From: Apostichopus japonicus | Taxonomy: Eukaryota; Echinodermata; Holothuroidea; Aspidochirotida; Stichopodidae | Assembly (NCBI RefSeq): GCF_037975245.1 | Contig: NC_092566.1 | Span: forward strand, 8,784,001-8,848,000 | DNA: 64,000 nucleotides | Direction: 5' to 3' | Shown: one piece after another, positions 1 through 60,394 of the stretch | How positions within the stretch are numbered: position 1 is the first letter of the stretch | Layout of the letters: each line of letters starts with the position of its first letter | Position numbers and translations under genes: made by a program | The notes under the pieces: model-generated | What the model saw: only the letters and a program-made list of their open reading frames with translations | What the model was told of the DNA's origin: nothing | Database searches by the model: none

Positions 1-141
1 CGACTTAACGGGGGAAGGGGGAGGGGTCCATAGGGTGCACAATTACATGGAGTAGACTTACCATATTTGAATGAGTGGTCAATAAGTAATTGTGTATCCG
101 TGTGTGCGAGTAAATGTGTGAGTAAAAGAGGGTGCCGCGAA

Positions 142-985
142 CATGGGCGGCGATCCGTACTTCCGAGTGGGGGGGGGGGGGGATATGACCTTGTTGACTA
201 TCTAAGCGTAGCGCCACCATAAGTTGGCGCGAAGCGTACAGGAAAATTTTGGGATTTACAAACCCTCTAGATGGCCGGAAACGGCACTTCCTGAGGTTTC
301 CAAGCGGATTATACCCAACTTTAAAATAGGGATATCATGTCCGAAATATCTCATAATCAGGATCCTAAATACTTTTTTTTTTAATTTCGGGTGTTATTTT
401 GGGAAAATTGCCCCTGTCAATCTTGTTTCAGGCGCTACGTTAGAATGTTCGAGAGCTCTTTTATATTATTCGATGAAGAAATGGCCTCAGGCTATTATAG
501 GCCTATACACATGCAATACACAATTACACATAGTTACATTCCTAGGTACCGATTGCTAGGGCATCCAGGTGAAACGTGTATTAAGCATTACCCTGGTAAC
601 ATGAGATTCTCAGCTATTCGAGGGAACATGTACGTGTGTAGGCCTACTATAGGGCCTATATGAATACTATGAGGGTGCATATATGTACTATATCAATACC
701 GTGGGCGCAATAATACATTTTGTTGTTATAGGGCCAATGAAGCCTACAGTCAACTATTCTTGCTTTATAACGACGGTTTATTTGAAAAGATCGCACTGCG
801 TTTATGGTAGGCGAGAAATGAAGCTAAAAAAGAGCCGTACATTCACGATGATGCATAAATGTAGGCATGAAAATATTCTTATCCCTGGCATTTGGTGGGG
901 GGGGGGGGGATATGGTGTATTACATTCCCTCCACCCATTTTCATGGGCGGATATATCCCCCCTTCCCCCAGGATCGCCGCCCATG
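142..985. mobile_element. hAT-like non-autonomous element, unit A only
   Basis: The ends are inverted repeats CATGGGCGGCGATCC (142-156) and its complement (971-985). The flanks are GCCGCGAA (134-141) and GTCGCGAA (986-993), a 7/8-matching 8-bp target duplication. Unit B keeps the empty site GTCGCGAA at 10220-10227, so this copy inserted after the A/B duplication. There is no transposase frame. Inside is a GCGCCACC...GGTTGGCGCG motif shared with the other hAT-like elements here. Confidence 0.85.
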
Positions 986-993
986 GTCGCGAA

Positions 994-1159
994 CTCCTAA
1001 ATCGTAAGGCCGATTGACTTCAAAACTTGGTGTGTGTGTATGCATGGGAATGGGTAGTCTTGGCCAAGTCGTTTGTTATACTCTTTTCTCGCGTACAAAC
1101 TGTACATGCCTCAGAGTCCGTTTCTGCCTACCACGAATGTGATTGTCCACTGTATTTTA
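994..1159. repeat. Start of ~300-bp satellite-like repeat (unit A)
   Basis: Begins with 'cgtaaggccgattgactt', the phrase that opens monomers at about 3294, 10240, 31384, 31610 and 44472. It is cut by the hAT-like element that follows. Confidence 0.6.
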
Positions 1160-2785: not shown

Positions 2786-3540
2786 TACGGGAGACAGGAC
2801 TTGAATAAACATTTTGGGGAAGTGGGCCCAATTGGCAAACGTCATTGGCTTCTTCGCTTTTCTGAAGCAAAACTGCAAAAAAATCAGAGGAAAACAGATA
2901 GCTTGGGAGATATGTGCAAGACCCTAGTATCAATCTAAAGCGTTGCCGAGGGTTTCTCTCTGGGCAGTAGAGCAAATAAATGCGAGAAAAAGAAAGGTAC
3001 ACTAGGCTGTTCATACTAGGTTCTTAACAAGACTAGGGAAAGGGATGTAGGGCCTCCGTGACTTATGACGTCATAGACAAAGGAGAAGACAAAGGTCAAA
3101 TAAACTAAAAACAGCATTGTGGTCATTAAATGAATAACAGTATGGCCCAATACTTCATACACAAGTAGGTTATCACAGACTGTATATCCACGGTGTGAAA
3201 ATTAGTTTAAAACGCCAATGCCCACGCGATCATAGCTAGTCAAAGTTCAACTTTTTTAAACGTAAAAGTGTTTTGAAAGCAACTCCTTCTTCGTAAGGCC
3301 GATGGACCTTAAACTTGTAGGTACGTGCCTTGGCATGGGTTGTTGCGCCTGTGTGACCAATAGCGTCATAGGATCAAAGGCAAAGTAACCAATAACAGCG
3401 CTGTTACCGTTACACGTACACTAAAAAGACAACATGACACAATACTTCAAACGTAAGTAGGTTATCACAAACAATATACAATTAACATTTTTATACGTTA
3501 AAATGTCTTAAAAGTTATAGCAAAATAGGTAACAATATAA
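2786..3540. repeat. ~300-bp satellite-like repeat (unit A)
   Basis: Follows the hAT-like element. From about 3050 two degenerate monomers are clear. Shared landmarks are a cgtcatag-type phrase, 'cacaatacttca/cccaatacttca', 'gtaggttatcaca', and 'cgtaaggccgatgga', about 295 bp apart. The same sequence occurs in units B-E. No coding function seen. Confidence 0.65.
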
Positions 3541-3739
3541 TGTAGAACAATCTCTTATCATCTTTGTTAAAAATAAATGCTATATAGTAATATCGAATAA
3601 TTACTATCTTATGCCAGACGAAACTGGACATTAAACACTACAAAGTCTAAAAGTCAACTTAATCGAATTTGTGTGTGTCTATAAGGCAGAAACTGTTCAA
3701 TGTAATGAAATGAAATGTTTATAGGAGTTGAAAATAGAT

Positions 3740-4110
3740 AACTTACTGTAAACTTCGACTACAGCTACTTCTTCGAAGTTTTGCCTCGATCATGCACCTT
3801 CATCATATATTTTCGTATAATTTGGTCTTATTGCTCGTATTTATAAGAATATGACAGGAAAAATTCACACTGCAACATCTTCGTCTTCTGGCTAATTATC
3901 ATTGTATCAATTAATCAATATTTTTCAGGATTCTGCAGTTTAATGGGAAACACACTTTGCGAATATATGAACCTTTGATCATAATATTTCACCAGTTGCC
4001 TTATCCCGGTAATGAAGTAAACGGTGCTGTTGAGCAATATTTATGAACAACTGATCCTGAGTTTCATGCACATAAGCGCAGTGAGGGAACTATACCTCAA
4101 CTGTTCACAC
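3740..4110. repeat. Conserved unit block (unit A)
   Basis: About 350 bp that recur at the same place in units B (13335-13690) and C (33000-33360). It contains 'cactgcaacatcttc' and 'aggattctgcagtttaat'. No frame is kept in all copies. Its retention across diverged units makes it either a recent homogenised segment or a noncoding element worth testing. Confidence 0.55.
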
Positions 4111-4725
4111 ATAAAAATAAAAAAGTTCAAGATCGGGTTTCTAGTTAACTTTTAACACGCATCCCGAACACCCCGGGGCGTAACAATATCAGGGAAGACG
4201 TTAATTGTATCTGCTTATTACAAAGTTACAAATTTGATAATGAGATCTACGGAGAGCAACTCCCACCCCTCCCTCCCCCAAAAACTAAAGATTTTCAAAT
4301 TGACAATAATGAATATTTCTGATTTATTAGCAATACTATGTCAAAATGTCTCTTTTTGGTTCGAATTTTAGACCCAATTTGACACGCACACAAACACACA
4401 AAATATTTTTGGAACCCCACTTCAAATATTGTACTAAGTCCATCCAATGTTATTGTGTTAATCTATGTTGGGGATAAAACCTACTGACACTGTTGATTTG
4501 GTCCGCGTTCCCCTCCTACGTGTTCCAATGGGGTCCAAAATACAGAGCAGTGGCAAAGAAAGCTAAACCAAAACGTCAAGGAGCAGATCGGGGGTGTTTT
4601 AGGGTATTCTCCACTATTCTCAGGCCAAGCTATACATGTTTTTTTTAGGTTTTACATTTGTTAAGCGCTTTGAGCAGCTTTGCTGGTGATGCGCTATTTA
4701 AATATTACTTAGTATTATAACAGAT
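4111..4725. mobile_element. Non-LTR/SINE-like repeat with AT-rich 3' tail
   Basis: The right end carries 'aagcgctttgagcagctt' followed by a short spacer and a ctatttaaatattact tail. This is the form of 3' ends of many invertebrate SINE/LINE copies. The same insertion, with the same tail, is at about 13700-14287 in unit B, so it predates the A/B duplication. The 5' end is not defined. The open frame seen in the unit B copy is interrupted here. Confidence 0.45.
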
Positions 4726-6191: not shown

Positions 6192-8372
6192 TCACCCATT
6201 CAGGTCAAAGATATGCATCATTGCAGACTGAAAGGTAATTACTAAGAGCTTAGGCTTGAAGTCTGACGTTACACATAAAGACACCGCATCCGAGAAAAAC
6301 AGCGGAAATTCTTTGGTTATGTCACTGTTCTCTCCTCTGTACTGAACAACAACACAACACTGTTCACACGGGGTTTGTTTCTCCCTCCAAAGAATATAAA
6401 TGAAGCCCTTCCCGTCTGAGCAAATACTGACAGGTATGTTGCACCTTTTGCTGACCTCTGGTTTTTGGAATTTGTGAATTTGTACACCTTTCATGTTTAT
6501 AGCCCATGCGTGTTTCCCTCCTATATCACAAACGAAGATGTTTGAATCGTGGACAATTAGATCGGCAGGCCACAGGCTCATGTCCCATGGAAGTCGTATG
6601 GTGTCTTTATAATTTAAGCTCTCGTCAAGCACGTGCATATCTCTGTTGTTATAGATGCATAGAAAGATGGAGTTAGTGACAGAATCCGTAGCGATGCATG
6701 TAACTCGCTGTTTTGACTGTGACCACCCTGGGATGAAATCGCGCAGGTGCTTGCTTAAATATGAACCATCAATGATATCATACAGAGCTATTCCATTTTC
6801 TTGACAGGCAACAGCAATTTTTAACTCATTGACAGGAGCACAGTAACAGCCAGGTTCGGAAAGTACTGATTTGAAATGTTTACCTAGCTTAGAATTTAAA
6901 ACTCTGCCTGTCATGTGTATAAAACTGATATAGTTTTGTTTGTCTGATGTACCCCCACTGATAACGATTCTACCATTCCATGTACATGCTATACTATTGA
7001 TATACAAGCCGGCAGCTTTGATACCATCAATGTGAACCACAGTGGCTTCAGTGCTGCATAAGTGTTCTTGTTTTAGCTGTCGCCCTACATAAATTGCCAG
7101 TTTTGCCACATTGGAGTAGTTCCTTTTCATATCCTGAATCAACGGCTCTGTGGCTTGGCAGATAGCTTCAATATTATGCGCTGCAGTCCAATCATCCTGA
7201 CTCGAAAGAACGTTTTCAGCTGTGTTTGTGACATATTCAAATTTTCTAACCGTACTATTTACTTCTGAAGAAAACTTCTCCCAGTTTAGAAGCTTCTCTC
7301 TCTTCTCAGATTCTATTTCGGTACAATCTTTTTGCAACTCCAGAGCGAGTTGTTTGCGTTTCGCATTTGCATCTTCTTGAGCTTGTTTTGAACGTTTCTT
7401 TAAGGCATTCGAGTTTTTAGTTGCCTCTGTGCGATGATTGATTTCAATTAGTTTGTAATTCTCTCGAATTTGTTGAATTTCCCTTTCCATTTCCTTGTTT
7501 TTAAGTGAAATATTTTCTTCAAGTTCCTGTGTTATTTCATTTTCTTCAACCTCAATCTTTCGTTGAATATCTCGCTGTGTACTTTCCAGACTACTCTTCG
7601 TTTCATTGTTTTTCTTTGTACTTTCGTCCAAATGTTTGGCGGCATTAGAGAAAATTTCGTCTTTAGCCATTTTTATTTGGGAGAGTGTTTCATAAACTCT
7701 GTATTTAAACTCATCAAGGGCCTTTGAATGCCTCTTTAATTTCTTTCTTTCTGATTTGGCAAGTTCTGTGACGTCATACATATCATGATTCCTGTGTTCT
7801 CCGTAGGTACAGGTCAAACAAATTGGGCGGTTTGCGCAAGATTTACAACATAACTGTGACTGATTCTGAGGATGAGTCTGGCACCTGGGAGCTTCCTTTA
7901 ATATGGATAACTTTCCGAGAGTGATATTTTTGGCTTCAGCATCTTCCAGTGATAGGATATGCGGCCTATGTTCCTGTAAACTTTTCCTGCTCAAGTGATA
8001 TTCATGACAATCCTCGCACAGAAAATCAGTACACTTGAAGCAGTATGCTGAAGATTTGGTTTGCTTGGAACAATCACCGCAAGTAAGAATTTGATCCTCT
8101 TTCAGAGACTTTTTTACTTTAATATAATCTAGGATTTCATTCATGTAAAAGTCTGACTTAAAGCCCTCTACGCCATTTTTTGGAACATCGATCTTTTCCT
8201 GACATAATGGACACTTGAAATCAGTAGGATCTTTGGCGATCATTTTCTCCAAGCATTCTGTACAATATCTATGGAGACATTGTAGTTGCCTTGGTTTCTT
8301 ATATTGTTCAAAGCAAACACAACACTGACAAAACTTCTCATCGATATCATCCACCACTCTAGCAGCTGCCAT
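6192..8372 (-). CDS. TRIM E3 ubiquitin ligase A (RING, two B-boxes, coiled coil, propeller-like C-terminus)
   Basis: 726 aa in one uninterrupted exon. The RING is C3HC4: C17, C20, C32, H34, C37, C40, C54, C57. B-box 1 covers about 98-138 (C98, C101, C111, C114, C119, C122, H126, H138). B-box 2 covers about 164-196 (C164, H167, C176, C179, C185, C188, H193, H196). A charged coiled coil follows to about 395, then about 280 residues of blade-like strands with GKGFIYILW-type turns, resembling NHL/TRIM56-like propellers. In the family the RING recruits a ubiquitin-loaded E2, the coiled coil dimerises and the C-terminus binds target; the target here is unknown. The start is the ATG shared with gene B (MAAA.V.DDIDEKFC), 20 nt past a 3' splice site. 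The gene is the first of five tandem paralogues. No frame damage is seen. Confidence 0.93.
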   Translation of the reverse strand: MAAARVVDDIDEKFCQCCVCFEQYKKPRQLQCLHRYCTECLEKMIAKDPTDFKCPLCQEKIDVPKNGVEGFKSDFYMNEILDYIKVKKSLKEDQILTCGDCSKQTKSSAYCFKCTDFLCEDCHEYHLSRKSLQEHRPHILSLEDAEAKNITLGKLSILKEAPRCQTHPQNQSQLCCKSCANRPICLTCTYGEHRNHDMYDVTELAKSERKKLKRHSKALDEFKYRVYETLSQIKMAKDEIFSNAAKHLDESTKKNNETKSSLESTQRDIQRKIEVEENEITQELEENISLKNKEMEREIQQIRENYKLIEINHRTEATKNSNALKKRSKQAQEDANAKRKQLALELQKDCTEIESEKREKLLNWEKFSSEVNSTVRKFEYVTNTAENVLSSQDDWTAAHNIEAICQATEPLIQDMKRNYSNVAKLAIYVGRQLKQEHLCSTEATVVHIDGIKAAGLYINSIACTWNGRIVISGGTSDKQNYISFIHMTGRVLNSKLGKHFKSVLSEPGCYCAPVNELKIAVACQENGIALYDIIDGSYLSKHLRDFIPGWSQSKQRVTCIATDSVTNSIFLCIYNNRDMHVLDESLNYKDTIRLPWDMSLWPADLIVHDSNIFVCDIGGKHAWAINMKGVQIHKFQKPEVSKRCNIPVSICSDGKGFIYILWREKQTPCEQCCVVVQYRGENSDITKEFPLFFSDAVSLCVTSDFKPKLLVITFQSAMMHIFDLNG

Positions 8373-8394
8373 TTTGTGATATAACTAATTAGCT
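8373..8394 (-). promoter_or_regulatory. 3' splice acceptor and 5' leader of TRIM gene A
   Basis: On the minus strand a run of T ends in CAACAG (AG at 8394-8393). It is followed by a 20-nt leader to the ATG at 8372. The arrangement is conserved in gene B. With the donor at 9605 it defines a 5'-leader intron of about 1.2 kb. Confidence 0.65.
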
Positions 8395-9604
8395 GTTGAA
8401 AAAAAAACATATGAAATAAAATTGTTTGTTGAAAGTATAACCAGAATGCCATTGTCTGACCTTTGCCAATTTCCATAGGCTTACACACCCAATAGGGTGC
8501 ACTTAAAGTTTATATATCATACATGTACTTTGGACTAGTGTAAAATCTTAACAAGTACAAATATGAGATACACAAGTGTAATAACAGGAATAAATAAACA
8601 AAGCAAAATCATAATTTCTTTGTTCAAGTCCGAATGCAAAACAATAAAGAGCAAACTCAAACATGCACATATATACATACCGTCACTTTCGCAAACATTT
8701 CTTTTGCCGTCGATAAGGAATCAATCAGTACGCCGAACTGTTCAGCGATTCCATGCCATGGTATAATAGTATTTAACACTGACACTGCACACACGATTTG
8801 TAAGTGCCTTTGACTTCAAGTGTTCAGCAAGTACTATTAATGCGGATACACATATCAACTATATACAGTTTTGACAAATACATACAAGTTAACCTCCATT
8901 CCAAGTATGAACTTCAAGGAAGATGTACTTTTTGTGTTATCGTGTTAGGAAGGTTTTCATAATTGACCTATGTTGACCACAAATGATCTTTGACCTCGAT
9001 GCTTATATCGACAAGGTTTTATACTTACCAAAGTATCTATCTATCTATCAATCAAGTATGGACTTCCACCAAGATTTACTTTGCAAGTAAAGGTGCTAAA
9101 ATAGTTTTGAAATGTTAACGTTATTGTCTCGAATGCCCTTTAACATTCACTACTTTCGATAATGTTCTTGCGCTTACCATGGAGAATCTACCTACTTGCT
9201 TATGTATTATTATGTTGACCTTTGACCTCAACTATCAATAATACGCATTTACTAACAATGGAGGATTTATCTATACCAAGTATTGTCTGAACGTCAAATA
9301 ATAATGTTGACTTCGGCCAAGGAGATTTGCAAGGTCCTTGTTGAACCACCTAATTGCTTCAGCAAAATATCAAAGTTGAGATCGGACTGTTGTCGTGTTC
9401 TCGAGAAAGCACTATTTTATAACCAAGCATTGCTTTCACGTGCATATGTTGTAAATTGATAATATACTATAGTTGCCAAAGCCAATATAACAGTACTGTG
9501 AGTATACTGTCTCTATATAACAACTGTTTAAGTTCAGCAGAAGTGCACATTATCTTATAAAACTTAACCAGGTAGCTTTCATGACTGGAATAACTTAAAC
9601 TCAC
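8395..9604 (-). other. Putative 5'-leader intron of TRIM gene A
   Basis: Bounded by GTGAGT (donor side, 9604) and CAACAG (acceptor side, 8393). It contains degenerate tandem-repeat sequence (for example around 8930-9320, 'tgacctttgacctcaa' phrases) and a short ATCT run near 9034. No exon was recognised inside. Confidence 0.5.
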
Positions 9605-9760
9605 CTGAGAATGGGTTTTCATGTTGGATATGATGGTGAAAAACAGGTTCCCGCACATTTCTGCGAATACAACTGCGTGTGTTACTGTCTACCTGTTCGC
9701 TAATTACACGTACGCAAGTGTACTTTACTTATATGCTAGGCTAAACCGGTATTTTCCAAC
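9605..9760 (-). promoter_or_regulatory. 5' noncoding exon and promoter-like block of TRIM gene A
   Basis: On the minus strand a conserved block ends in CTCAG|GTGAGT, a near-consensus donor at 9605/9604. Upstream are CTTGCGTACGTG (9707-9718) and a TATA-like CATATAAGT (9727-9735). The same block, with donor, occurs in units B, C and D, while the introns between differ greatly in length. The transcription start is inferred. This copy contains ATGs at 9658 and 9622 that read through the splice junction out of frame with the main ATG. Confidence 0.6.
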
Positions 9761-10088
9761 AGGATAAAAATAGAATTTTACAGTCCACCGCATATATTAT
9801 CGAATCCCAACACGTACTGAGGATGAGATGTTGAACTTTGTTAATTATATGCAGGGGTACATTATTTTTAAATAGAGATGTGCAAAAAAAAACAGCAACT
9901 AACAAATTGAGGGCCTATTTTATGTAGAAGTATGATAATTATTCCTATGCATATTATATAGGTTAAGTTATTACTTTCTCATCCCTACGTGTAAGTAGTG
10001 TACTTGGGATGAGATATTGTAACCTTGAGCAGTATATGAAATTGTTGCCCACTTCATACTACTTGAAATTAAACTGGGTGAGTTCATC
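9761..10088. other. Unit A/B junction, no gene
   Basis: Contains the site 'aacaggataaaaatag', the uninterrupted form of the position where unit B has its 11.7-kb insertion. It then runs as AT-rich sequence to the repeat start at 10089. The same tail is at 30761-31138. Confidence 0.6.
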
Positions 10089-10227
10089 CGACTTAACGGG
10101 GGAAGGGGAGGGGTCCATAGGGTGCACAATTACATGGAGTAGACTTACCATATTTGAATGAGTGGTCAATAAGTAATTGTGTATCCGTGTGTGCGAGTAG
10201 TGTGTGAGTAGAAGAGGGCGTCGCGAA

Positions 10228-10600
10228 CTCCTAAATCGTAAGGCCGATTGACTTCAAAATTTTGCGTGTGTGTGTGTTTGCGTGTGTGTGTGTGTATGCA
10301 TGGGAATGGGTAGTCTTGACCAAGTCGTTTGTTATACTCTTTTCTCGCGTACAAACTGTACATGCCTCAGAGTCCGTTTCTGCCTACCACGAATGTGATT
10401 GTCCACTGTATTTTACATGCCAGAGGTTCTTTCCGAAACAAACGTCTTGGACATTTCGCCAAAGAGGGGCGTGAAAACCACAAAATCTTTATTCATATTA
10501 TTATTACGGAATTGCGTGTCATGTGAGATCATGTTTCTCCCACAGCAATTAGCGACCGTCTCGCAGTGTACAAAACAATCTAAGGGCAAGTGATTGTGCG
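10228..10600. repeat. Start of satellite-like repeat (unit B) with TG-rich tract
   Basis: Matches unit A 994-1159 and extends about 200 bp further up to the intact hAT target site. That segment is deleted in unit A. It includes a gtgtgt-rich stretch at about 10264-10297. Confidence 0.55.
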
Positions 10601-15712: not shown

Positions 15713-17908
15713 TTAATTCCCATTCAGGTCAAAGATATGCATCCTTGCAGACCGAAAAGTAATTACTACGAGCTTAGGCTTTGATTTGGGGAATTTCGAG
15801 TCTGATGCTACACATAAAGACACCGCATCCGAGAAAAATGGCAGAAATTCCATGGTTATGTCACTGTTGTTTCCTCTATACTGAGCAACAACACAACGCT
15901 GTTCACACGAGAATTGTTCCTCCCTCCATAGAATATAAATGAAGCCCTTGCCGTCTGAGCAAACACTGACAGGTATGTTGCACTTATTACTGACCTCTGG
16001 TTTTTGAAAATCGTGAATCTCTTCACCTTCCATGTTTATAGCCCATGCTTGTCTCCCTTCTTTATCACAAACGAAGATGTTTGAATTGTGGACAATTAGA
16101 TCGACTGGCCACGCTATTATCTCTGGAAGTCGTATGGTGTGCTTATAATTTAAGCTCTCATCAAGCACATACAGATTTCTGTTGTTGTAGATGCCTAGAA
16201 TGATGGAGTTGCTGACAGTATCCATAGCGATGCATGCAACTCGTAGTTTAGACCGTGAGCACCCTCGGATGAAATCGCCCAGGTGATTGTTCAAATATGA
16301 ACCATCACTTATATCAAACAAAGCTATTCCATCTTCTTGACAGGCAACAGCAATTTTTAACTTATTGACAGGAGCACAGTAGCAGCCAGGTGAGAAAAGT
16401 ACTGAATTGAAATGTTTACCAAGCTTAGAACTTACAATTTTGCCTGTCATGTCCATTGAACTAATATAGTTTTGTTTCTCTGATGTACCTCCACTGATAA
16501 CGAGTCTACCATTCCATGTACATGCTATACTATTGATATACATGCCGGGAGCTTTGATATAATCAATATGAACCACAGTGGCTTCAGTGCTGCATAAGTG
16601 TTCTTGTTCTTGCTGTCTCTCTACATAAATTGCCAGTTTTGCCACATTGGAATAGTCCCTTTTCATTTCCTGAATCAACGGCTCTGTGGCTTTGGAGATA
16701 GCTTCAATACTATGCACTGCAGTCCAATCATCCTGACTCGAAAGAACGTTTTCAGCTGTGTTTGTGACATTTTCAAATTTTCTCACCGTACTATTGACAC
16801 TTGAAGAAAACTTCTCCCAGTTTAGAAGCTTCTCTCTCTTCTCAGATTCTACTTCGGTACAAACTTTTTGCAACTCCAGAGCGAGTCGGTTGCGTTTCGC
16901 ATTTGCATCATCTTGAGCTTGTTTTGAACGTGTCTTTAAGGCGTCAGACTTTTGTGCTGCCTCTGTGCGATGATTGATTTCAATTATTTCGTATTTCTCT
17001 CGAATTTGCTGAATTTCTCTTTCCATTCCCTTGTCTTTACGTGAAATATTTTCTTCAAGTTTCCGTTTTATTTCATTTTCTTCAACCTCTATCTTTCGTT
17101 GAATATCTCGCTCTGTACTTTCCAGACTACCCTTCGTTTTATTGTATTTCTTTGTACTTTCTTCCAAATGTTTGGCGGCATTAGAGCAAATTTCGTCTTC
17201 AGTCATTTTTATTAGGGAGAATGTTTCATAAATTCCGTTTTTCCACTGATCAAGGGCCTTTAACTGCCCCTTTAATTTCTCTCTTTCTGATTTGGCAAGT
17301 TCTGTGACATCATACATATCATGATTCCTGTGTTCTCCGTAGGTACAGGTCAAACAAATTGGGCGGTTTTCGCAAGATTTACAACATAACTGTGACTGAT
17401 TCTGAGAATGAGTCTGGCACCTGGGAGCTTCCTTCAATATGGATAACTTTTCAAGAGTGATATTTTTGGCTTCAACACCTTCCAGTGATAGGATATGCGG
17501 CCTATGTTCCTGTAAACTTTTCCTGCTCAAGTGATATGTATGACAGTCCTCACACAGGAAGCCAGTACACTTGAAGCAGTATGCTGAAGATTTGGTTTGC
17601 TTGGAACAATCACCGCAAGTAAGAATTTGATCCTCTTTCAGAGACTTTTTTACTTTAATATAATCTAGGATTTCATTCATGTAAAAGTCTGACTTAAAGC
17701 CCTCTACGCCATTTTCTGGAACCTCGATCTTTTCCTGACATAACGGACATTTGAAATCAGTAGATTCTTTGGCGATCATTTTCTCCAAGCATTCTGTACA
17801 GTATCTATGGAGACATTGTAGTTGCCTTGGTTTCTTATATTGTTCAAAGCAAACACAACACTGACAAAACTTCTCATCGATATCATCTAACACTTTAGCA
17901 GCGGCCAT
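15713..17908 (-). CDS. TRIM E3 ubiquitin ligase B
   Basis: 731 aa, closest paralogue of gene A. The RING (C17 to C57), B-box 1, B-box 2 and coiled coil are all intact, followed by a propeller-like C-terminus ending FDLNGN. The frame extends 48 codons upstream to 18052, but the homologous start is the ATG at 17908 (MAAAKVLDDIDEKFC). The extension reads through the polypyrimidine tract of a 3' splice site, so it is not taken as coding. Relative to A, the RING and B-boxes are almost unchanged, while the coiled coil and C-terminal blades carry most substitutions. A short insertion near the C-terminus (about residue 712) adds a SKFPK-like stretch. Same orientation and setting as gene A, and probably same promoter type. 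Confidence 0.93.
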   Translation of the reverse strand: MAAAKVLDDIDEKFCQCCVCFEQYKKPRQLQCLHRYCTECLEKMIAKESTDFKCPLCQEKIEVPENGVEGFKSDFYMNEILDYIKVKKSLKEDQILTCGDCSKQTKSSAYCFKCTGFLCEDCHTYHLSRKSLQEHRPHILSLEGVEAKNITLEKLSILKEAPRCQTHSQNQSQLCCKSCENRPICLTCTYGEHRNHDMYDVTELAKSEREKLKGQLKALDQWKNGIYETFSLIKMTEDEICSNAAKHLEESTKKYNKTKGSLESTERDIQRKIEVEENEIKRKLEENISRKDKGMEREIQQIREKYEIIEINHRTEAAQKSDALKTRSKQAQDDANAKRNRLALELQKVCTEVESEKREKLLNWEKFSSSVNSTVRKFENVTNTAENVLSSQDDWTAVHSIEAISKATEPLIQEMKRDYSNVAKLAIYVERQQEQEHLCSTEATVVHIDYIKAPGMYINSIACTWNGRLVISGGTSEKQNYISSMDMTGKIVSSKLGKHFNSVLFSPGCYCAPVNKLKIAVACQEDGIALFDISDGSYLNNHLGDFIRGCSRSKLRVACIAMDTVSNSIILGIYNNRNLYVLDESLNYKHTIRLPEIIAWPVDLIVHNSNIFVCDKEGRQAWAINMEGEEIHDFQKPEVSNKCNIPVSVCSDGKGFIYILWREEQFSCEQRCVVAQYRGNNSDITMEFLPFFSDAVSLCVASDSKFPKSKPKLVVITFRSARMHIFDLNGN

Positions 17909-17927: not shown

Positions 17928-18857
17928 GTTGAAAAAAAACATATGAAATCTAATTTTTTGTTGAAAGTATAACCAGAATGCCATTGTCTGACCTTTGCCA
18001 TTTTCCATAGGCTTACACACCCAATAGGGTGCACTTTAAGTTCAAATATCATATACGTACTTTGGACTAGTGTAAAATCTTAACAAGTACAAATACAAGA
18101 TACATAAGTATAATGAAAGGAATAAAGTAATCAAAGCAAAATCATAATTCCTTTGTTCAAGTCCGAATGCAAAACAATAAAGAGTACACATAAACATGCA
18201 CACATATATACCATCACTAATGCAAACGTTCTATTTGCCGTCGATAAGGAATCAACCAGTAAGCCGAACTGTTTAGCGATTCAATGCCATGGTATAATAG
18301 TATTTAACACTGACACTGCCCACAAGATTTGTTAGTGCCTTTGATTTCAAGTGTTCAGCAAGTATTAATGCTGACATACATGTCAACTATATACAGTTCA
18401 TGGACATCTACATACAAGTGAACCTCCATTCCAGGTATGAACTTCAAGGAAGATGTACTTTGCGAGTTAAGGTGCTAACATAGTTTTGAAATGTTAACGT
18501 TGTTGCCTCGAATGACCTTTAACATTCACTACTTTCGATAAGGTTCTTGCGCTTACCACGGAGAATCTATCTACTTGCTAATTTAAAATTATGTTGACCT
18601 TTGACCTCAACTATCAATAACACGCCTGTTTTTACAATGGAGGATCTACCTATACCAAGTACTGTCTGAACGTCAAGCATATGCACTTGTCATGCATATG
18701 TTGTATATTGATGCTATACTTTAGTTGCCTAAGCCAATATAACAGTACTGTGATTACACTTTCTCTATATAAACAACTGTATAAGTTCAGCAGAAGTGCA
18801 CATTATCTTATAAACCTTTACCAGGTAGCTTTCATGACTGGAATAACTTAAACTCAC

Positions 18858-19040
18858 CTGAGAATGGGTTTTCGTGTTGGATAGAATGGTGTAAAACAGG
18901 TTTCGATCCTCACATCCACTTTCCGCACATTTCCGCAAATACAACTTTGTGTGTAGGTCTACCCTGTGTTTCTGCAGGAACTCCGTGGTTTCTGTTCGCT
19001 AGTTACACGTACGCAAGTGTACTATACTTATGTGCCAGGC
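18858..19040 (-). promoter_or_regulatory. 5' noncoding exon and promoter-like block of TRIM gene B
   Basis: Counterpart of 9605-9760. CTCAG|GTGAGT donor at 18858/18857, and the CTTGCGTACGTG motif near 19009-19020. The upstream frame here is only MCGKWM then stop, within the exon, unlike gene A. The 11.7-kb insertion begins just outside, at 19069, so sequence farther upstream has been displaced. Confidence 0.58.
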
Positions 19041-22869: not shown

Positions 22870-22984
22870 CGGTATGACATAAATGGTATTCCACGTAATT
22901 TTTACCGATTCCGATTATGTTCCGATTATGCAATAATCGTACCGATTCCGATTAAGTTAATCGTTTGAATACTAAATATCACGG

Positions 22985-37878: not shown

Positions 37879-37976
37879 GTGAGGCGGTCGATGGTAATTT
37901 ACTGTGTGGAGTGTCAGGAGGGTATAAGTGAGGTGGTCGGTGGTAAATTACTGTGTGAAGTCAATGGTAAAATTTT
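37879..37976. repeat. 49-bp minisatellite, two copies (unit C)
   Basis: Copies begin at 37879 and 37928 with 'gtgaggcggtcgatggtaat'. Unit D has three copies, so copy number changed after duplication. Confidence 0.8.
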
Positions 37977-40189: not shown

Positions 40190-40350
40190 CTGAGAACGAG
40201 TTTTCGTGTTGCAAAGGATACTGTAAATCGGGTTTCCTCACATCTACTTTACGCACATTTCGCAAATACAACTTTGTGTGTAGGTCTACCTAACGTGTGT
40301 TTCTGTTCGCTAACTACACGTACGCAAGTGTACTATACTTATGTGCTAGG
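40190..40350 (-). promoter_or_regulatory. 5' noncoding exon and promoter-like block of TRIM gene C
   Basis: CTCAG|GTGAGT donor at 40190/40189, and CTTGCGTACGTG near 40316-40327. Strongly similar to the blocks of units A and B although the coding exon belongs to another subfamily. An upstream frame MCVK then stop lies wholly in the exon. Confidence 0.58.
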
Positions 40351-40394
40351 CGAAACCGGTATTTTCCAACAGGATAAAAATAGAATTTTACAGT

Positions 40395-46958: not shown

Positions 46959-49142
46959 TTACGGCAACCCATATTTGTACAACTTTCCATTTTTCCACGA
47001 TACCATCAACAGTTTCTCTGTTGAGCCAATCCGTGCTATCGTAAAACATTTGATGCTTGCATTGATTGGCTTCGTGTAGAGCACTTCCATGTCGTTGCTG
47101 TAGACTGAAAGATTATATGTTCCGTCCATCCCAGGCAACACATTACTCCACAGAACAAAGATGAAACCTTTTCCATCTCTACGGACACACACTGGTCGTT
47201 TAGTTGACACGGTCGATGAAGATAGCTGGTACTGTTCCTCGCCGCCTCCCAAATTTACTGAATATATTTTCTTGTTCGTGTAATCGGATACCAAAACTTC
47301 CCAACTATAAGCGTTGACATCAACTAAATCAGTTACATAATCCAGCCTAAACAAGCGGCTATATTGCAACTGATCATCTAATATATATAAGTTGTTGGTG
47401 TACCCGCATCCAATTATGATGTATTCAGCTTCATCCACACTCACGGATCTCATGCTCTGACCGCGTGGCCAGTTTACAATGTCACTCATTGTTTTCCCTT
47501 GAAATGATCCATTTCGAACATCAAATACACCGATTCCGTGTGGGTCATAAGCAATTACAACTTGATACTCTTTGAAGGCAGCACAATAACTTTCGGGATA
47601 CTGGAAGGGACCCTGTTGAGACTTAATAAAGCGTTGGCGTAATACTTTACCCCTCTGATCGACCACAGTAACGTGGTATGTGTAGCCTTCTGTAGGTCCG
47701 GTCACAACAATGCTTCCACTTTGAGTGCAGGTAATACCGCTAATTCTCCATCCTTTAGTTTGAATCCCATCAATTTCGACCACGCTCTCTACCTGTTTAG
47801 AAATTGGTACGTTTCCCACTTCTTCGAATTCCTTGAATGTAAGAGTAGCCGAGAGAGACTTAGGTAGTGCTTCCATCGCAGAGAATGCTCGCTTCATATC
47901 TTGATGAAAAGATGCTGCCGCTGAGAAAATTCCTCCAACATTTTGTGCTATTGTCCAATTATTGTCACTTGAAAGTACCCCAGATCCAGTTTGTGTGATG
48001 TTATCACATCTTTTTATTGTCCTCTGTATCTGATCTGAGATTTCATTACCTTTTGTAAGATTTTCTTTCTTCTCAACTTCCAAAGATTTACAGAAATTAT
48101 TCCATTTCTCATCTATGGTTTCACTTTTCTTTTGTAAGTTGGACTCATTGGCATCTTGATCGATCTTGAGGTCCTTCAGTTTAGCATCTGCTTCAAGTTT
48201 GTCTTTTACTTTCATGGCCTCGAAGTCCTTTCTAAGTTTTGCTATTTTTTCCTCCATTTCCCGCTTTCTGATCAACAAATTATCTTCAAGTTTGTTCTTG
48301 ATTGCAGTCTCAGCACGTAGACCTTCCTCTCGAATCTTCGCTTTCTCTTTGTCCGCCCTTTCCACTTCTTGTTGGTATTGGTATTTGGTATCTTGCAATT
48401 TCGTCTCTGCATCAGATATTATCTCTTGCTTCGATTTCTTTATTTCAGCAGATGTTTTACAAAGTTTATCTTTGCAGTCGTTTACCTCCTCAAGAAGCTG
48501 TTTCAGCCTTGCACGTTCGGCATTGGCGAAGCTTATGACGTCAAAAATATCGTGGTATCTGTGTTCACCATACGTACAAGTTACACAAATGGGGAGGTTG
48601 GAACAAGTCTTGCAACAGAGTTGCGACAAATTTTCAGCATGGGTCTGACATCTGGGGGCTTCCTTCAGGGAGCTCAGTTTCTCTAGAGATATGTTTTGGG
48701 AATCAACATCTTTTAACGTTAGGATATGAGGCCTATGCTCTTCCAAAATCTTACTAGTCACGTGATACGTGTGACAGTTACGGCATAAGAAATCCCGACA
48801 CTTGAAGCAGTAAGCTGTTGGCTTCTCTTGTTGGGAACAGCCGACGCAGTGTCGCGAATGATCTTCTTCGAGAGAATTTTGTACCTGAATAAATTCAAGG
48901 ATCTCATTCACGTAAAAATCCTTCTTGAAACCTTCTGCTCCATTTTCTGGGACATCGAACTCGGCTTGACAAAGAGGACAGTTGATAGTTCCATTACCAA
49001 GACCTATAAGTTGTTCGATGCAATGTTTACAGTATCTGTGAAGACAAGCTAATTGTCTAGGATCTTCATACTGCTCAAAACAAATGCAGCATTGACAGAA
49101 TTTTTCGTCAATATTCTTTAAAATCACGGAAGCAGAGGCCAT
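46959..49142 (-). CDS. TRIM E3 ubiquitin ligase D
   Basis: 727 aa, closest to gene C. RING, B-box 1, B-box 2, coiled coil and propeller-like C-terminus are all intact. N-terminal changes from C are few: the loop before the last RING pair reads GLGNGT, DHSRHC precedes B-box 1, and HRYHD replaces HRNHD in B-box 2 without touching the metal ligands. Substitutions and small gaps are more frequent in the C-terminal region, especially about residues 595-650. The frame extends 65 codons upstream to 49337 with a hydrophobic FFFCVLLFFLL run. This is the translated polypyrimidine tract and intron, not a signal peptide; the start is MASAS at 49142. Confidence 0.93.
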   Translation of the reverse strand: MASASVILKNIDEKFCQCCICFEQYEDPRQLACLHRYCKHCIEQLIGLGNGTINCPLCQAEFDVPENGAEGFKKDFYVNEILEFIQVQNSLEEDHSRHCVGCSQQEKPTAYCFKCRDFLCRNCHTYHVTSKILEEHRPHILTLKDVDSQNISLEKLSSLKEAPRCQTHAENLSQLCCKTCSNLPICVTCTYGEHRYHDIFDVISFANAERARLKQLLEEVNDCKDKLCKTSAEIKKSKQEIISDAETKLQDTKYQYQQEVERADKEKAKIREEGLRAETAIKNKLEDNLLIRKREMEEKIAKLRKDFEAMKVKDKLEADAKLKDLKIDQDANESNLQKKSETIDEKWNNFCKSLEVEKKENLTKGNEISDQIQRTIKRCDNITQTGSGVLSSDNNWTIAQNVGGIFSAAASFHQDMKRAFSAMEALPKSLSATLTFKEFEEVGNVPISKQVESVVEIDGIQTKGWRISGITCTQSGSIVVTGPTEGYTYHVTVVDQRGKVLRQRFIKSQQGPFQYPESYCAAFKEYQVVIAYDPHGIGVFDVRNGSFQGKTMSDIVNWPRGQSMRSVSVDEAEYIIIGCGYTNNLYILDDQLQYSRLFRLDYVTDLVDVNAYSWEVLVSDYTNKKIYSVNLGGGEEQYQLSSSTVSTKRPVCVRRDGKGFIFVLWSNVLPGMDGTYNLSVYSNDMEVLYTKPINASIKCFTIARIGSTEKLLMVSWKNGKLYKYGLP

Positions 49143-52576: not shown

Positions 52577-53380
52577 GTATTGCCAAGTGAGACTAGATCT
52601 ACAATTGAGGGTTTGTGTTATAAGACATATGTAAATACTGAGAGTAAGTTATTAGGCATGCCCGCAAACACTATTAACTTCTGTAGGCAACCAACATAGC
52701 ATGTACGGTACCAATTGTCAGCCTGACCTAGTAACCAACGTTCTTGGCCTCGCCAAGAATGTTGTTAAAAGTAGGACAACATTTCTGATTTGTGTGAACA
52801 CAAATCACAAGAAACGTTGTTCCTGAATTGAAAACGTACATTTTCTTGCAAGAGAGTTATTCATTTCCCTTTTTCTTAACCACATCGACAAAATATATGG
52901 GCACCTTAATCATTAGCAATCAATTTCTCGATTATCTGTTTTGGGAGTGGTTGATGACGACTATTTGGAAAAATCAATTTCTCCGTTGCGGTTTGTATTC
53001 GACACCTTTCTTTCAGTTTACATACTCCTCTCGTGTTACCAAGTAATAATCCAGTTATCATGTACCTTTTGAATTAGTGTGTTAACAAGCTCGCGTCAAG
53101 TAAATTCAACACCATCGCATGCCGTCACCACCGCATACTAGATTCATTTTGCCTGCGGCAACGCTCCGGCAAAAATCATAGTTGTGTTTGGACTCATGTC
53201 GTGTTGCTTTAAAAGCGCCATTTTATAACTAAGTGTTGCATTTCATGTACATATGAGGTACATTGCTATAGTACCTAAGTCAATAAAACAGTGGTGCGAC
53301 TACTGTCCCTATTAAACTACTGTTTAATCTCAGCAGAAGTGTTTTATATACTGGTAGCTTTCACGACTGGAATAACTCAC

Positions 53381-53530
53381 CTGAGAACGGGTTTTCGTGT
53401 TGCAAAGGATACTGTAAATCGGGTTTCCCACAGCCACTTTCCGCAAATACAACTTCGTGTGTCACTGTAGGTTTACCCTTTGTTTATGTTCTCTAATTAC
53501 ACGTATGAACTATACTCGTGTGTTACACTG
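53381..53530 (-). promoter_or_regulatory. 5' noncoding exon and promoter-like block of TRIM gene D
   Basis: CTCAG|GTGAGT donor at 53381/53380. Upstream sequence resembles units A-C, but the CTTGCGTACGTG motif is degraded here. No upstream ATG at the conserved position. Confidence 0.5.
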
Positions 53531-56580: not shown

Positions 56581-58773
56581 TTATGTCAATCCATATCTAT
56601 ACAACTTTCCATTCGCCTTTGATACCATCAACAGTTTCTCTGTTGAGCCAATCCGTCCTACCGTAAAACATCTGATGCTTGCGTAGATTGGCTTCGTGAA
56701 GAGCAATTTCATGTCATTGTTGTAAACTGAAAGATTGTATGTTCCACCCATCCCGGCAAACGCATTACTCCACAGAACATAGATGAAACCCCTTCCATCT
56801 CTACGGACGCACACTGGTCGTTTAGTTGACACGGTCGATGAAGAGAGCTGGTAGAGTTCCTCACCGTCTTCCACACTTACTGCATATACTTTCATGTTCA
56901 TGTAATCGGATACCAAAACTTCCCCAGCATTAGTGTAGACATCAATTAACTTACTTACATGATGAAGCATCAACAAGCGACAATATTGCAATTGATCATT
57001 CAATACATATACTGTGTCGGGGTTCCCGCATCCAATAATGATGTAATCACCTTTGTCATCCACACTCACGGATCTCACGATCTGACCGCGTGGCCAGTCG
57101 ACAATGTCATTCATTGTTTTCCCTTGAAATGATCCATTTCGAACATCGAATATACCGATTCCATGTGGGTCATAAGCAACTACAACTTGATACTCTTTGA
57201 AGGCAGCACAATAACTTTCGGGATACCGGAAAGGACTCTGTGGAGATTTACCGGTAATGAAGCATTGACGTAATACTTTGCCACTCTGATCGACCACAGT
57301 AACGTGGAATTTGTAGCCTTCTGTAAGTCCGGTCACAACAATGCTTCCACTTTTAGTACAGGTAATGCCGCTAATGCTCCATCCTTTAGCTTGAATCCCA
57401 ACAATTTCGACCACGCTCTCTACCTGTTTGGAAATTGTTACGTTTCCCACTTCTTCGAATTCCTTGAATGTAAGATTAGCCGAGAGAGACTCAGGTAGTG
57501 TTTCCATCGCAGGAAATTCTCGCTTCATATCTTGAAGAAAAGATGCTCCCGCTGAAAGAATTCCTCCTACATTTTGTGCTATTGTCCAATTATTGTCACT
57601 TGAAAGTACCCCAGATCCAGTCTGTGTGATGTTATCACATCTTTTTATTGTCCTCTGTATCTGATCTGATATTTCATTACCTATTGTAAGTTTTTCTTTC
57701 TTCTCAACTTCCAAAGATTTACAGAAATTATCCCATTTCTTATCTATGGTTTCATTTTTCTTTTGTAAATTGGACTCTTTTGCATCTTGATCGATCTTGA
57801 GGTCTTTAAATTTAGCGTCTGCTCCAAGGTTTTCCTTTATTTTCAAGACCTCGAAATCCACTCTTAGTTCTGCTATTTTTTCCTCCATCTCCCGCTCTCT
57901 GATCAACAAATTATCTTTAAGTTTGTTCTTGATTGCAGTCTCAGCACGTAGACCTTCCTCTCGAATCTTCGCTCTCTCTTTGTCCACCTTTTCCACTTCT
58001 TGTTGGTATTGGCATTTCGTATCTTGCAGTTTCGTCTCTGCATCAGATAATATCTTTTGCTTCGACTTCTCTATTTCATCAGATGTTTTACAAAGTTTTT
58101 CTTTGCAGTCGTTTACCTCCTCAAGTTGATGTCTCAATTTTTCACGTTCGGCATTGGCGAAGCTTATGACGTCAAAAATATCGTGGTTTCTGTGTTCACC
58201 ATACGTACAAGTTACACAAATGGGGATGTTGGAACAAGTCTTGCAACACAGTTGTGACAAATTTTCAGCATGGGTCTGACATCTGGGGGCTTCCTTCAGG
58301 GAGCTCAGTTTCTCTAGGGATATGTTTTGGGAATCAACATCTTTTAATGTTAAGATATGAGGCCTATGCTCTTCCAATATCTTACTAGTCACGTGATACG
58401 TGTGACAGTTACGGCATAAGAAATCCCGACACTTGAAGCAGTAAGCTGTTGACTTCTCTTGTTGGGAACAGCCGACGCATTGTCGCGATTGATCTTCTTC
58501 GAGAGAATTTTGTACCTGAATAAATTCAAGGATCTCATTCATGTAAAAATCCTTCTTGAAACCTTCTGCTCCATTTTCTGGGACAACGTACTCGGCTTGA
58601 CAAAGAGGACAGTTGATAGTTCCATTACCACGACCTATAAGTTGTTCGATGCAATGTTTACAGTATCTGTGAAGACAGGCTAATTGTCTTGGATCTTCAT
58701 ACTGCTCAAAACAAATGCAGCATTGACAGAAGTTTTCGTCAATATTCCTTAAGATCATCGAAGCAGACGCCAT
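56581..58773 (-). CDS. TRIM E3 ubiquitin ligase E
   Basis: 730 aa, second subfamily with C and D. All RING and B-box ligands are present. The N-terminus reads MASASMILRNIDENFC, and AEYVVPENG replaces AEFDVPENG between RING and B-box 1. The coiled coil carries more changes than C versus D (for example KIKENLGADAKFKD). The C-terminal blades are distinct near residues 600-650. The frame extends 14 codons upstream to 58815 through an ACACAG splice acceptor; MASAS at 58773 is the supported start. Unlike genes A-D, no conserved 5' noncoding exon was found in the 5 kb upstream, so this copy may lack the array promoter or use another. Confidence 0.92.
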   Translation of the reverse strand: MASASMILRNIDENFCQCCICFEQYEDPRQLACLHRYCKHCIEQLIGRGNGTINCPLCQAEYVVPENGAEGFKKDFYMNEILEFIQVQNSLEEDQSRQCVGCSQQEKSTAYCFKCRDFLCRNCHTYHVTSKILEEHRPHILTLKDVDSQNISLEKLSSLKEAPRCQTHAENLSQLCCKTCSNIPICVTCTYGEHRNHDIFDVISFANAEREKLRHQLEEVNDCKEKLCKTSDEIEKSKQKILSDAETKLQDTKCQYQQEVEKVDKERAKIREEGLRAETAIKNKLKDNLLIREREMEEKIAELRVDFEVLKIKENLGADAKFKDLKIDQDAKESNLQKKNETIDKKWDNFCKSLEVEKKEKLTIGNEISDQIQRTIKRCDNITQTGSGVLSSDNNWTIAQNVGGILSAGASFLQDMKREFPAMETLPESLSANLTFKEFEEVGNVTISKQVESVVEIVGIQAKGWSISGITCTKSGSIVVTGLTEGYKFHVTVVDQSGKVLRQCFITGKSPQSPFRYPESYCAAFKEYQVVVAYDPHGIGIFDVRNGSFQGKTMNDIVDWPRGQIVRSVSVDDKGDYIIIGCGNPDTVYVLNDQLQYCRLLMLHHVSKLIDVYTNAGEVLVSDYMNMKVYAVSVEDGEELYQLSSSTVSTKRPVCVRRDGRGFIYVLWSNAFAGMGGTYNLSVYNNDMKLLFTKPIYASIRCFTVGRIGSTEKLLMVSKANGKLYRYGLT

Positions 58774-58792
58774 TATCGCTACATGGAAACCT
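58774..58792 (-). promoter_or_regulatory. 3' splice acceptor and leader of TRIM gene E
   Basis: ATTTCGGACACAG (AG at 58792-58791) then GTTTCCATGTAGCGATA to the ATG. The T-tract is weaker than in C and D, and the leader has gained an ATG followed at once by a stop codon (ATGTAG). Confidence 0.5.
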
Positions 58793-58815
58793 GTGTCCGA
58801 AATAAAATACAACAA

Positions 58816-60394
58816 ACTAGATAATTTGTTAAGGCACCATAAAAAATGTAGTTTCGAGGGTGCTATGGTTTCAATGGTTTTAATAACAATTAGTGTAGAG
58901 TGTTCAAATGTAATTCATTGATTTGTTAACCCTCCATATTATTCACAGACGTAGATGAGGGCTCAATTAGATAATTAAATGTCTAAGAGAGGAAATGAAG
59001 TTAACGAACGCTCTGAGTTAAATCAATTGAAGTTAATATTTGAATAAGAGTGACTAGCCTAATATGCGGAAGGAATACTGATGACCTTCAAGCGATTCAA
59101 AAGAAAGACAATGCCACCAGGAACTATGTATATCTCATTTTCACAGATAAAACGCTGCTAGGATTTTGTTCCTAGAATAAATGATATTGTGAGGCCCAAA
59201 AGATCAGGCTTACCTAGCTCACCAACGTCACAGTATGACACATTTCCCCGATTTTTTTTCCCGCGTAAGAAAAACCAAATCATCTGTTCCACATGTTCCA
59301 CTAAAGATGACTAACCTTGCTCGTTCGACATACTTTCAGTAGAAATGTGGAACTCGATTCTATGTTTGAATGTCACCACGAAGATTTAATAACGAAATTC
59401 TGGTTCTTAAGACAATGTCGATCAAACGAATGAAAATTGAAGAAACATATCCCTCTCCTTCGTTTTACTTTGTACGTCCTCAGAGTGTAGTAGACGGTTA
59501 ATTGTATAATTAAGTTACTGTCTATAATATATTAATTTCGATATGTTCATGTAACTTACCCCAACTTACTTCTTAAAGCTATGATGGATAGTTGGTGAGA
59601 GAAATTTGAAATCCTCGTTCGTCCAAATACAGTTCGGCAGCCCTGTCTGTATGTTTTAATACTTAACGCTAAAAAAAGCAATATAGCTTCATATTATAAG
59701 GACGATGAACATGTGATTTTGATCACTCAATACACAATGTATCATACAAATGGAAAGAACCAGATAAGTTTTATCACGGACTTTGGAATTACTATCCACA
59801 CAGTCGATAGCCGAGTACGAAGGTCGCTTTTCATCAACCATATTTGATAGACAACGACAATGTCAATATGATTTATATTTAGATATTGATAAGTGGATTA
59901 TTTATGTGTATAGACATGTTAATTGCCATTAACATCACACTGAGTAGGTAGAATATTTGAACAAGAAAATGCTGCGTGTCCTAATACATGGCTTAATAAA
60001 TACGAGACTTCGGACTACCTTACCCGAACAGATGCCTTATCGCTTGTTTTATTTACTCCATTTTTGTTCAGATATTTTGGCAAGTTGTCTGCAAACTTTG
60101 TAGTTTGACATTAAAGAAGCAATGAACTTCTTTCCTTGTGTCCTCAGCAACCAACCAGTGAAGTTACCAGAATGCAAAATGCATTGTGGTTGCAATGATG
60201 TAACATGAGCAGTTTTCTCCATGAATCAGACGTAATATATGGTGAGGGTGTACAACATACTCGATCTTAGTAATACAGTGAAAAGCAGTTTGATATGACA
60301 AAAAAAAGATCGCAATGACACAGACTGCCCTGAAATGACTATATTGACCTCAACAACAGGCTTCTTGATATGATACATCAACATACTATAAATA
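58816..60394. other. No gene recognised
   Basis: Homology to units C/D fades by about 58910. AT-rich; a possible minus-strand donor (CTAG|GTAAGC) at about 59212 is not conserved in other units. Confidence 0.5.

What the first reader, a model, noticed from the sequence alone, without database searches (positions are those of the whole stretch)
1..58900. Five-unit tandem TRIM array driven by ~10-kb segmental duplication
Five complete RING/B-box/coiled-coil/propeller genes lie in one orientation inside repeating units whose flanks also align. Two subfamilies (A/B and C/D/E) share the same unit skeleton, so one ancestral locus expanded twice. Fast-expanding TRIM families often serve innate immunity. 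The sequence shows the expansion; the immune role is inference.
Basis: partly seen in the sequence, partly recalled or inferred. Interest (0 to 1): 0.7.

Follow-up and report, generated by a model that had tools for sequence, protein, structure and literature searches.

The report
Tandem TRIM genes sharing young spacers
A chromosome segment, probably from an animal, carries five similar ubiquitin-ligase (TRIM) genes in a row, and stretches of the DNA between the genes, including a likely shared promoter and first exon, look much younger than the split between the two gene types they surround, which suggests that old genes were re-fitted with common control regions by recombination.

Summary
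The five intact TRIM genes are real (A 6192-8372, B 15713-17908, C 34649-36841, D 46959-49142, E 56581-58773, all minus strand), each one coding exon with RING and B-boxes; the one modelled (C) ends in a fold nearest to NHL propellers. The repeated units are real for A/B and C/D. E shares the 3.3-kb gene core and short 3'-side pieces, but no upstream flank. A/B and C/D/E units share an ordered, patchy skeleton. An 11.7-kb TIR element (19069-30760) explains the wide B-C gap. The simple history (one locus expanded twice) does not fit: between types, fourfold sites are near saturation (30-40% identical, random 27%) and the 3' noncoding DNA of the gene core does not align, yet the end block, dn2 and dn1 (with D) are 75-89% identical outside gaps, and between-type divergence in these blocks is only 1.1-2.0 times the within-type one. 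The end block holds the window's only four CAG|GTGAGT splice donors, so it is probably promoter plus first exon. Best reading: ectopic recombination in spacers and 5'UTR intron joined old coding exons to younger shared flanks. Independent repeat insertion is the main rival. Immune role untested. TRIM arrays are a known kind; the age mismatch is the interesting part.

The parts
6192..8372 (-). TRIM gene A, coding exon (726 aa), type alpha
   Evidence: Open frame; Pfam RING, B-box below cut-off; RING nearest TRIM2/TRIM56/TRIM3 in PDB
15713..17908 (-). TRIM gene B, coding exon (731 aa), type alpha; 82% identical to A
34649..36841 (-). TRIM gene C, coding exon (730 aa), type beta; 37-39% identical to A/B over the aligned part
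   Evidence: structure model
46959..49142 (-). TRIM gene D, coding exon (727 aa), type beta
56581..58773 (-). TRIM gene E, coding exon (730 aa), type beta; no shared promoter block found upstream within the window
9356..9792 (-). End block of A: predicted promoter + noncoding exon 1, donor CAG|GTGAGT at 9599-9607
18684..19068 (-). End block of B: predicted promoter + exon 1, donor at 18852-18860; cut off on the right by the TIR element
39980..40402 (-). End block of C: predicted promoter + exon 1, donor at 40184-40192
53163..53525 (-). End block of D: predicted promoter + exon 1, donor at 53375-53383
8385..9604 (-). Predicted 5'UTR intron of A (alternative acceptor about 8 nt further upstream); its first part (9356-9604) aligns with C/D
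36847..40189 (-). Predicted 5'UTR intron of C (acceptor choice uncertain by about 12 nt)
3054..3649 (.). Spacer block dn1 of unit A (B: 12673-13262; D: 44527-45498; C partial and repeated: 31305-31880; E weak: 54586-54944)
3805..4156 (.). Spacer block dn2 of unit A (B: 13399-13736; C: 33050-33408); outside gaps A-C 88.5% vs A-B 90.3%
9754..10232 (.). Start block, contiguous with the A end block; matched at 30752-31294, partly at 1-142 and 42422-42529; its distal part also occurs inverted elsewhere
19069..30760 (.). 11.7-kb insertion with exact 17-bp terminal inverted repeats (19069-19085 and 30744-30760) and a likely AAAAA target duplication; separates B's end block from the start block
   Evidence: copia-type gag fragment inside at 24956-25309
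33788..36999 (.). Gene core shared by C, D (46053-49305) and E (55632-58897)

Best explanation
This is a tandem array of TRIM E3-ligase genes of the RING/B-box/coiled-coil/NHL-like-propeller build, in an unidentified genome that the TRIM content suggests is animal. Units multiplied by tandem duplication, probably unequal crossing-over. The two gene types (alpha A/B, beta C/D/E) are old, but ectopic recombination (unequal crossing-over or gene conversion) in the intergenic spacer and in the 5'UTR intron has since put both types into a common, much younger frame: promoter plus noncoding exon 1 in front, shared spacer behind. In effect single-exon coding cassettes were exchanged inside, or their flanks homogenised across, one recombining array. 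Shown: array, intact frames, two types, in-register skeleton, near-saturation of silent sites against low spacer divergence. Predicted from sequence: promoter, exon 1 and intron. Inferred: the exchange mechanism, joint regulation, and that the propeller is the diversifying recognition part.
For: Fourfold sites alpha vs beta 29.7-40.5% identical (27.1% expected from composition), within type 89.3-93.5%. Spacer blocks alpha vs beta, outside gaps: end 75.4-82.0%, dn2 87.0-88.5%, dn1 with D 77.6-88.8%; A-B in the same blocks 85.2-92.9%, C-D in the end block 88.4%. Between/within distance ratios over A-D: end 2.01 (95% 1.60-2.57), dn2 1.29 (0.93-1.89), dn1 left 1.14 (0.92-1.42), right 1.20 (0.98-1.47); at fourfold sites distances are 1.18-2.07 between and 0.068-0.116 within, ten-fold or more. 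Noncoding DNA on the 3' side of the cores does not align between types (0 of 2035 bp for A, 0 of 1976 for B), whereas 1937 of 4381 bp of the A-B spacer does; the same query against the TIR element gave 0 of 4381. In dn1 D is nearer A/B than C (AD .175 vs DC .261, 18 of 5000 bootstraps reversed; BD .126 vs DC .252, 0 of 5000). The only four CAGGTGAGT sites of the window lie in register in the four end blocks (0.29 expected, 0 of 100 shuffles reach 4). The E-C/D match ends at the matching place, just upstream of the ATG in what is intron in C/D (58897). Nonsynonymous change sits in coiled coil + propeller, not RING/B-box (A/B 126.8/1240 vs 14/496 sites, P 3e-8).
Against: No reads, transcripts or second genome were available, so recombination junctions are inferred from block edges. 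The skeleton is patchy and its blocks could be repeat copies. Identities are outside gaps; with gaps BLAST gives 69-72% for A's end block against C and D (A-B 77.5%). Ratios differ between blocks (end 2.0, others 1.1-1.3), so no single exchange event explains all. dn1 holds internal repeats and C's copy is partial and repeated, so D-C is less secure; dn1 comparisons with C or E fall to 64-83%, and C-D in dn1 is only 70-79%. The extra dn1 and dn2 matches at 992-1058, 10226-10272 and 62221-62263 show that pieces can lie out of register. A test for conversion inside the C/D/E coding exons was negative at third positions (runs P 0.74), although clustered at all sites. The intron cores do share 173 of 983 bp (A) and 44 of 775 bp (B) with C/D/E introns; all of it falls on the repeat at 60514-60768 upstream of E.
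Confidence: 0.53

Rival explanations
1. The shared spacer blocks are copies of dispersed repeats that inserted independently near alpha and beta genes shortly before the A/B and C/D duplications; the two gene types were brought together or expanded by ordinary duplication.
For: The window has such repeats: a family at 27388-28122, 41205-41833, 60405-60788 in both orientations, a 100-150 bp family at 171-291, 1211-1391, 10684-10842, 43479-44388 inverted between units, and the distal start block. dn1 contains internal repeats and is repeated in C; short dn1 and dn2 pieces lie out of register. Block ages differ.
Against: The end block and dn2 occur once per unit that has them, and with dn1 keep the same order and orientation relative to the gene; apart from three short weak matches nothing else of them was found in the 64 kb. 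The end block carries a splice donor at the same place in four genes of both types, which suits a gene part better than an insertion.
Confidence: 0.24
2. One ancestral unit duplicated long ago; the blocks stayed similar because they are under strong constraint (promoter, exon 1, enhancers), while everything else diverged.
For: The end block looks like promoter plus first exon, a kind of sequence that can be constrained.
Against: The blocks are not slow: A-B differ in end, dn1 and dn2 by 7-15% and C-D in the end block by 11.6%, as much as or more than at fourfold sites (6.5-10.7% within types). Constraint strong enough to hold 75-88% across a near-saturated split would leave A-B nearly identical there. 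It would need relaxation in both lineages at about the time of the late duplications. (The short start-block piece, 140 sites, is 97.1% identical in A-B.)
Confidence: 0.12
3. One reading: one locus duplicated twice with flanks and genes of the same age.
For: Collinear skeleton on both sides of the genes.
Against: Silent sites near saturation and unalignable 3' core noncoding DNA versus 75-89% identical spacer blocks.
Confidence: 0.06
4. Assembly artefact: units are unmerged haplotypes or misjoined copies.
For: A 247-bp tandem duplicate at 99.6% near the right end shows that near-identical copies exist in the window.
Against: Copies differ by about 12% (A/B) to 12-20% (C/D pieces); RING/B-box dN/dS 0.12-0.26 shows separate long-term selection; the TIR insertion is present in one spacer only.
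Confidence: 0.04

Closest known systems
TRIM56 and the C-VII TRIM-NHL proteins (TRIM2, TRIM3, TRIM32, TRIM71, Brat, Mei-P26)
   Same: RING of A and C closest to TRIM2/TRIM56/TRIM3 among solved chains; C-terminal model of C closest to NHL propellers of Mei-P26, Brat, TRIM3, TRIM2 (ranks 1-12, target TM 0.73-0.77). TRIM56 has two B-boxes and an NHL-like domain without clear NHL repeats (passages of PMC11768893; PMC2533329).
   Different: No Pfam filamin or NHL match at E up to 1; the coiled coil to propeller gap in the C model is about 25 residues, too short for a filamin domain. A disordered region is described between coiled coil and propeller of TRIM56.
Lineage-specific TRIM expansions (fish, known to me as finTRIM; the primate chromosome 11 TRIM locus)
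   Same: TRIM genes multiplied by duplication, in primates by segmental duplication (title and abstract start of PMC2657112 in the listing; passages of PMC3228819).
   Different: The primate genes end in B30.2 (for the fish genes this is recalled); here the end is an NHL-like propeller on a single coding exon. Both are reported under positive selection; here no dN/dS is significantly over 1.
Sea urchin Sp185/333 immune gene clusters
   Same: Clustered genes, tandem segmental duplications, repeats at unit edges, proposed unequal crossing-over and limited gene conversion (passages of PMC5103432).
   Different: There the genes themselves are described as similar; here two nearly saturated gene types sit in similar spacers.
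Human KIR complex
   Same: Head-to-tail genes separated by about 2.5-kb intergenic regions in which unequal crossing-over is reported (passages of PMC7089957).
   Different: Unrelated proteins; KIR exchange is shown in individuals, here it is inferred from divergence.

Membership tests
TRIM (RBCC) family | RING finger at the N terminus | tested here: met
   5 of 5 pass PF00097 and PF13445 cut-offs (B and E were given without the first Met, D with 4 extra residues in front); C3HC4 pattern in 5 of 5
TRIM (RBCC) family | One or two B-boxes after the RING | tested here: met
   PF00643 E 1.7e-5 to 3.3e-4 in 5 of 5, above the curated cut-off in 2 of 5 (C, E); B-box1-like cysteine pattern in 5 of 5, my strict B-box2 pattern in 0 of 5
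TRIM (RBCC) family | Coiled coil | tested here: inconclusive
   Long helices 202-299 and 311-390 in the model of C, pLDDT about 50-78; no coiled-coil predictor run
NHL-type six-bladed propeller at the C terminus | Propeller fold | tested here: met
   24 strands in residues 451-728; the 12 best Foldseek hits are NHL domains, best E 3e-14, target TM 0.73-0.77; WD40 and other propellers are among the later hits. Only C was modelled, with a 5-row alignment, mean pLDDT 57.7
NHL-type six-bladed propeller at the C terminus | NHL repeats by sequence (Pfam) | tested here: not met
   No NHL family at E up to 1 in 5 of 5; so 'NHL-like', not NHL
C-VII with filamin domain (TRIM2/3/71) | Filamin domain between coiled coil and propeller | tested here: not met
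   No Pfam match in 5 of 5 and no room in the C model
TRIM56 orthology | Clustering with TRIM56 in a tree with other TRIMs | not tested
   No library of animal proteins was at hand; RING similarity only
Antiviral TRIM | Induction by infection, restriction activity | not testable with these tools
   No expression or assay data
Segmental tandem duplication | Collinear direct repeats including noncoding flanks | tested here: met
   A/B and C/D; not met for E's upstream side

The most novel reading that the evidence does not exclude
The array is a cassette-exchange platform: the 5'UTR intron and spacer are recombination zones that place anciently divergent single-exon TRIM coding cassettes behind one interchangeable promoter/first exon, so that new recognition domains can be brought under a common control without mixing coding sequence.
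Probability: 0.3. Interest if true: 0.62.

Novelty: new member of a known kind. Interest (0 to 1): 0.42.

Why it matters
Lineage-specific TRIM arrays are known, and in an ordinary array genes and flanks share one history. Here parts of the flanks, with a probable promoter and first exon, look far younger than the split of the genes they serve. If borne out, it shows how an immune-type gene array can keep divergent coding sequences apart while sharing regulation, and gives a concrete locus in which to test it with long reads and RNA-seq.

Tried and rejected
Gene conversion within the C/D/E coding exons: all-site patterns, 3' flank included, are clustered (254 runs vs 312 expected, 0 of 5000 permutations as low; segment scans P 0.005, 0.065 and 0 of 200 for C, D and E as the odd one), but the 99 informative third positions are not (68 runs vs 65.6, P 0.74), so lineage-specific amino-acid change explains it as well; not claimed. 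Positive selection: no pair and domain of those tested has dN significantly above dS; highest is the A/B coiled coil, 1.29, P 0.58. Variable residues lean to propeller loops in C/D/E (P 0.016) but not clearly in A/B (P 0.087). Hidden pseudogenes: the best tblastn match outside the five genes had E 0.26. Relatives in IMG/VR: none confirmed of 26 pattern matches. Rfam at gathering thresholds: no hit. Bacterial promoter scan of 9000-10000: not applicable to an animal gene, ignored. Pfam on 10 open frames outside the TRIM genes (7 of the 44 listed for the TIR element region, and 3 elsewhere): only a copia-type gag fragment passed its cut-off. The organism could not be identified: no whole genome is held for the window.

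Literature: seven searches showed, among the rows listed, no title or abstract start about a TRIM array with flanks younger than the genes; this covers only open-licence PMC papers and these terms. Papers: PMC2533329, PMC11768893, PMC13043383, PMC5103432, PMC7089957, PMC3228819 seen as passages; PMC3503706 abstract and outline; PMC2657112 search listing only.

Full report
Observation. Five long minus-strand frames encode TRIM proteins of 726-731 residues. RING is above the curated cut-offs in 5 of 5, the B-box in 2 of 5, with weaker matches (E below 4e-4) in the other three. A and B are 82% identical, C/D/E 83-89%, and the two types 37-39% over the aligned part. Self-comparison gives A/B as one long repeat (1800-9043 vs 11427-18573, 88.4%) with further direct blocks from position 1 to 19068, and C/D as a set of collinear pieces up to 40348/53525. 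E shares the gene core (55632-58897 against C) and short 3'-side pieces, but none of the upstream flank.

The wide B-C gap. A's and C's end blocks run unbroken past a point at which B's stops (19068); the continuation resumes at 30761. The intervening 11,692 bases begin and end with the same 17-base sequence in inverted orientation, flanked by A-runs consistent with a five-base target duplication. So a TIR element has split an otherwise regular spacer; without it the B-C start-to-start distance would be about 7.2 kb (coordinates). It contains a copia-type gag fragment, perhaps nested.

The shared skeleton. Profile searches place the end block in A, B, C, D, dn2 in A, B, C and dn1 in all five units, in C and E as overlapping partial pieces. 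Most of these copies were in the profiles and match by construction; a plain search with A's blocks on both strands finds the same places, all direct, plus short extra pieces at 992-1058, 10226-10272 (dn1) and 62221-62263 (dn2). The TIR element holds none of these three blocks. The start block is less clean: its distal part also occurs inverted at 4381-4467 and 13959-14039. Other repeats in the window occur in both orientations and out of register.

Age mismatch. At fourfold sites the two types are 29.7-40.5% identical, with 27.1% expected from composition; within types 89.3-93.5%. The 3' noncoding DNA in the core does not align between types (0 of 2035 bp in A, 0 of 1976 in B). In the introns 173 of 983 (A) and 44 of 775 (B) bp do, all on the repeat at 60514-60768 upstream of E. 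In contrast the spacer blocks, outside gaps, reach 75-82% (end), 87-88.5% (dn2) and 78-89% (dn1 with D) between types, against A-B 88.7%, 90.3% and 85-93%, and C-D 88.4% in the end block; dn1 comparisons involving C or E are lower, 64-83%. With gaps counted, A's dn2 is as close to C (85.9%) as to B (83.6%), and its end block is 69-71% to C and D against 77.5% to B. Between/within distance ratios over A-D are 1.14 to 2.01 with upper limits to 2.57, against ten-fold or more at fourfold sites (1.18-2.07 vs 0.068-0.116; the lower limits of single pairs go down to 0.79). In dn1, D is significantly closer to A/B than to C or E, opposite to its coding exon. Constraint does not easily explain this, since the blocks diverge between A and B as fast as or faster than silent sites.

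What the end block is. It contains CAGGTGAGT on the minus strand in A, B, C and D; these are the only four in the window, with 0.29 expected and 0 of 100 shuffles reaching four. AG dinucleotides after T-rich tracts lie 5-20 nt before the ATGs. I therefore predict a promoter plus noncoding exon 1 and a 5'UTR intron, 0.9-4.2 kb long. The type boundary lies inside this intron (9356 in A, 39980 in C), and E departs from C/D at the matching place, 58897. No transcript evidence is available and no animal promoter test was run.

Protein. The C model (mean pLDDT 57.7; the propeller mostly 60-88, the RING/B-box part poor) matches NHL propellers best. No NHL or filamin family is found by sequence. RING/B-box is under purifying selection (dN/dS 0.12-0.26 in the N-terminal 205 codons). 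Coiled coil plus propeller is freer (0.39-0.87) and takes most replacements, but nowhere significantly above neutral.

Interpretation. Best: unequal crossing-over or conversion through spacer and 5' intron placed two old coding types in one young frame. Different block ratios argue for more than one event. Main rival: independent insertion of repeats, which needs a genome search I could not run. The immune role is plausible from relatives (TRIM56 antiviral work, passages; TRIM up-regulation in urchin coelomocytes after UVB, not infection, and 140 genes annotated as TRIM there, passages) but untested here.

Noticed in passing
19069-30760: 11.7-kb element with exact 17-bp TIRs and probable 5-bp AAAAA target duplication; superfamily not identified; copia-type gag fragment inside at 24956-25309.
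   Followed up: partly
27040-27295 and 29745-29978: Two 15-bp-period GC-rich minisatellite arrays (CCCGGACAATT) in inverted orientation, about 2.4 kb apart, inside the TIR element.
   Followed up: no
63482-63978: 247-bp tandem duplication, 99.6% identical: very recent or an assembly effect.
   Followed up: no
1-142: Matches the start block, so the array probably continues off the left edge, perhaps with another TRIM promoter just outside the window.
   Followed up: partly
27388-28122, 41205-41833, 60405-60788, 8928-8997: Dispersed repeat family in both orientations, out of register with the units.
   Followed up: partly
171-291, 1211-1391, 10684-10842, 43479-43617, 44116-44388: A 100-150 bp repeat that lies in opposite orientation in the A/B and the D spacers.
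   Followed up: no
28506-28636 and 29089-29218: AT-rich inverted repeat pair (44-bp arms, 98% complementary for the outer part) nested between the minisatellites.
   Followed up: no
19940-19989 and 20948-20997: 50-bp inverted repeat, 98% complementary, near the left end of the TIR element.
   Followed up: no
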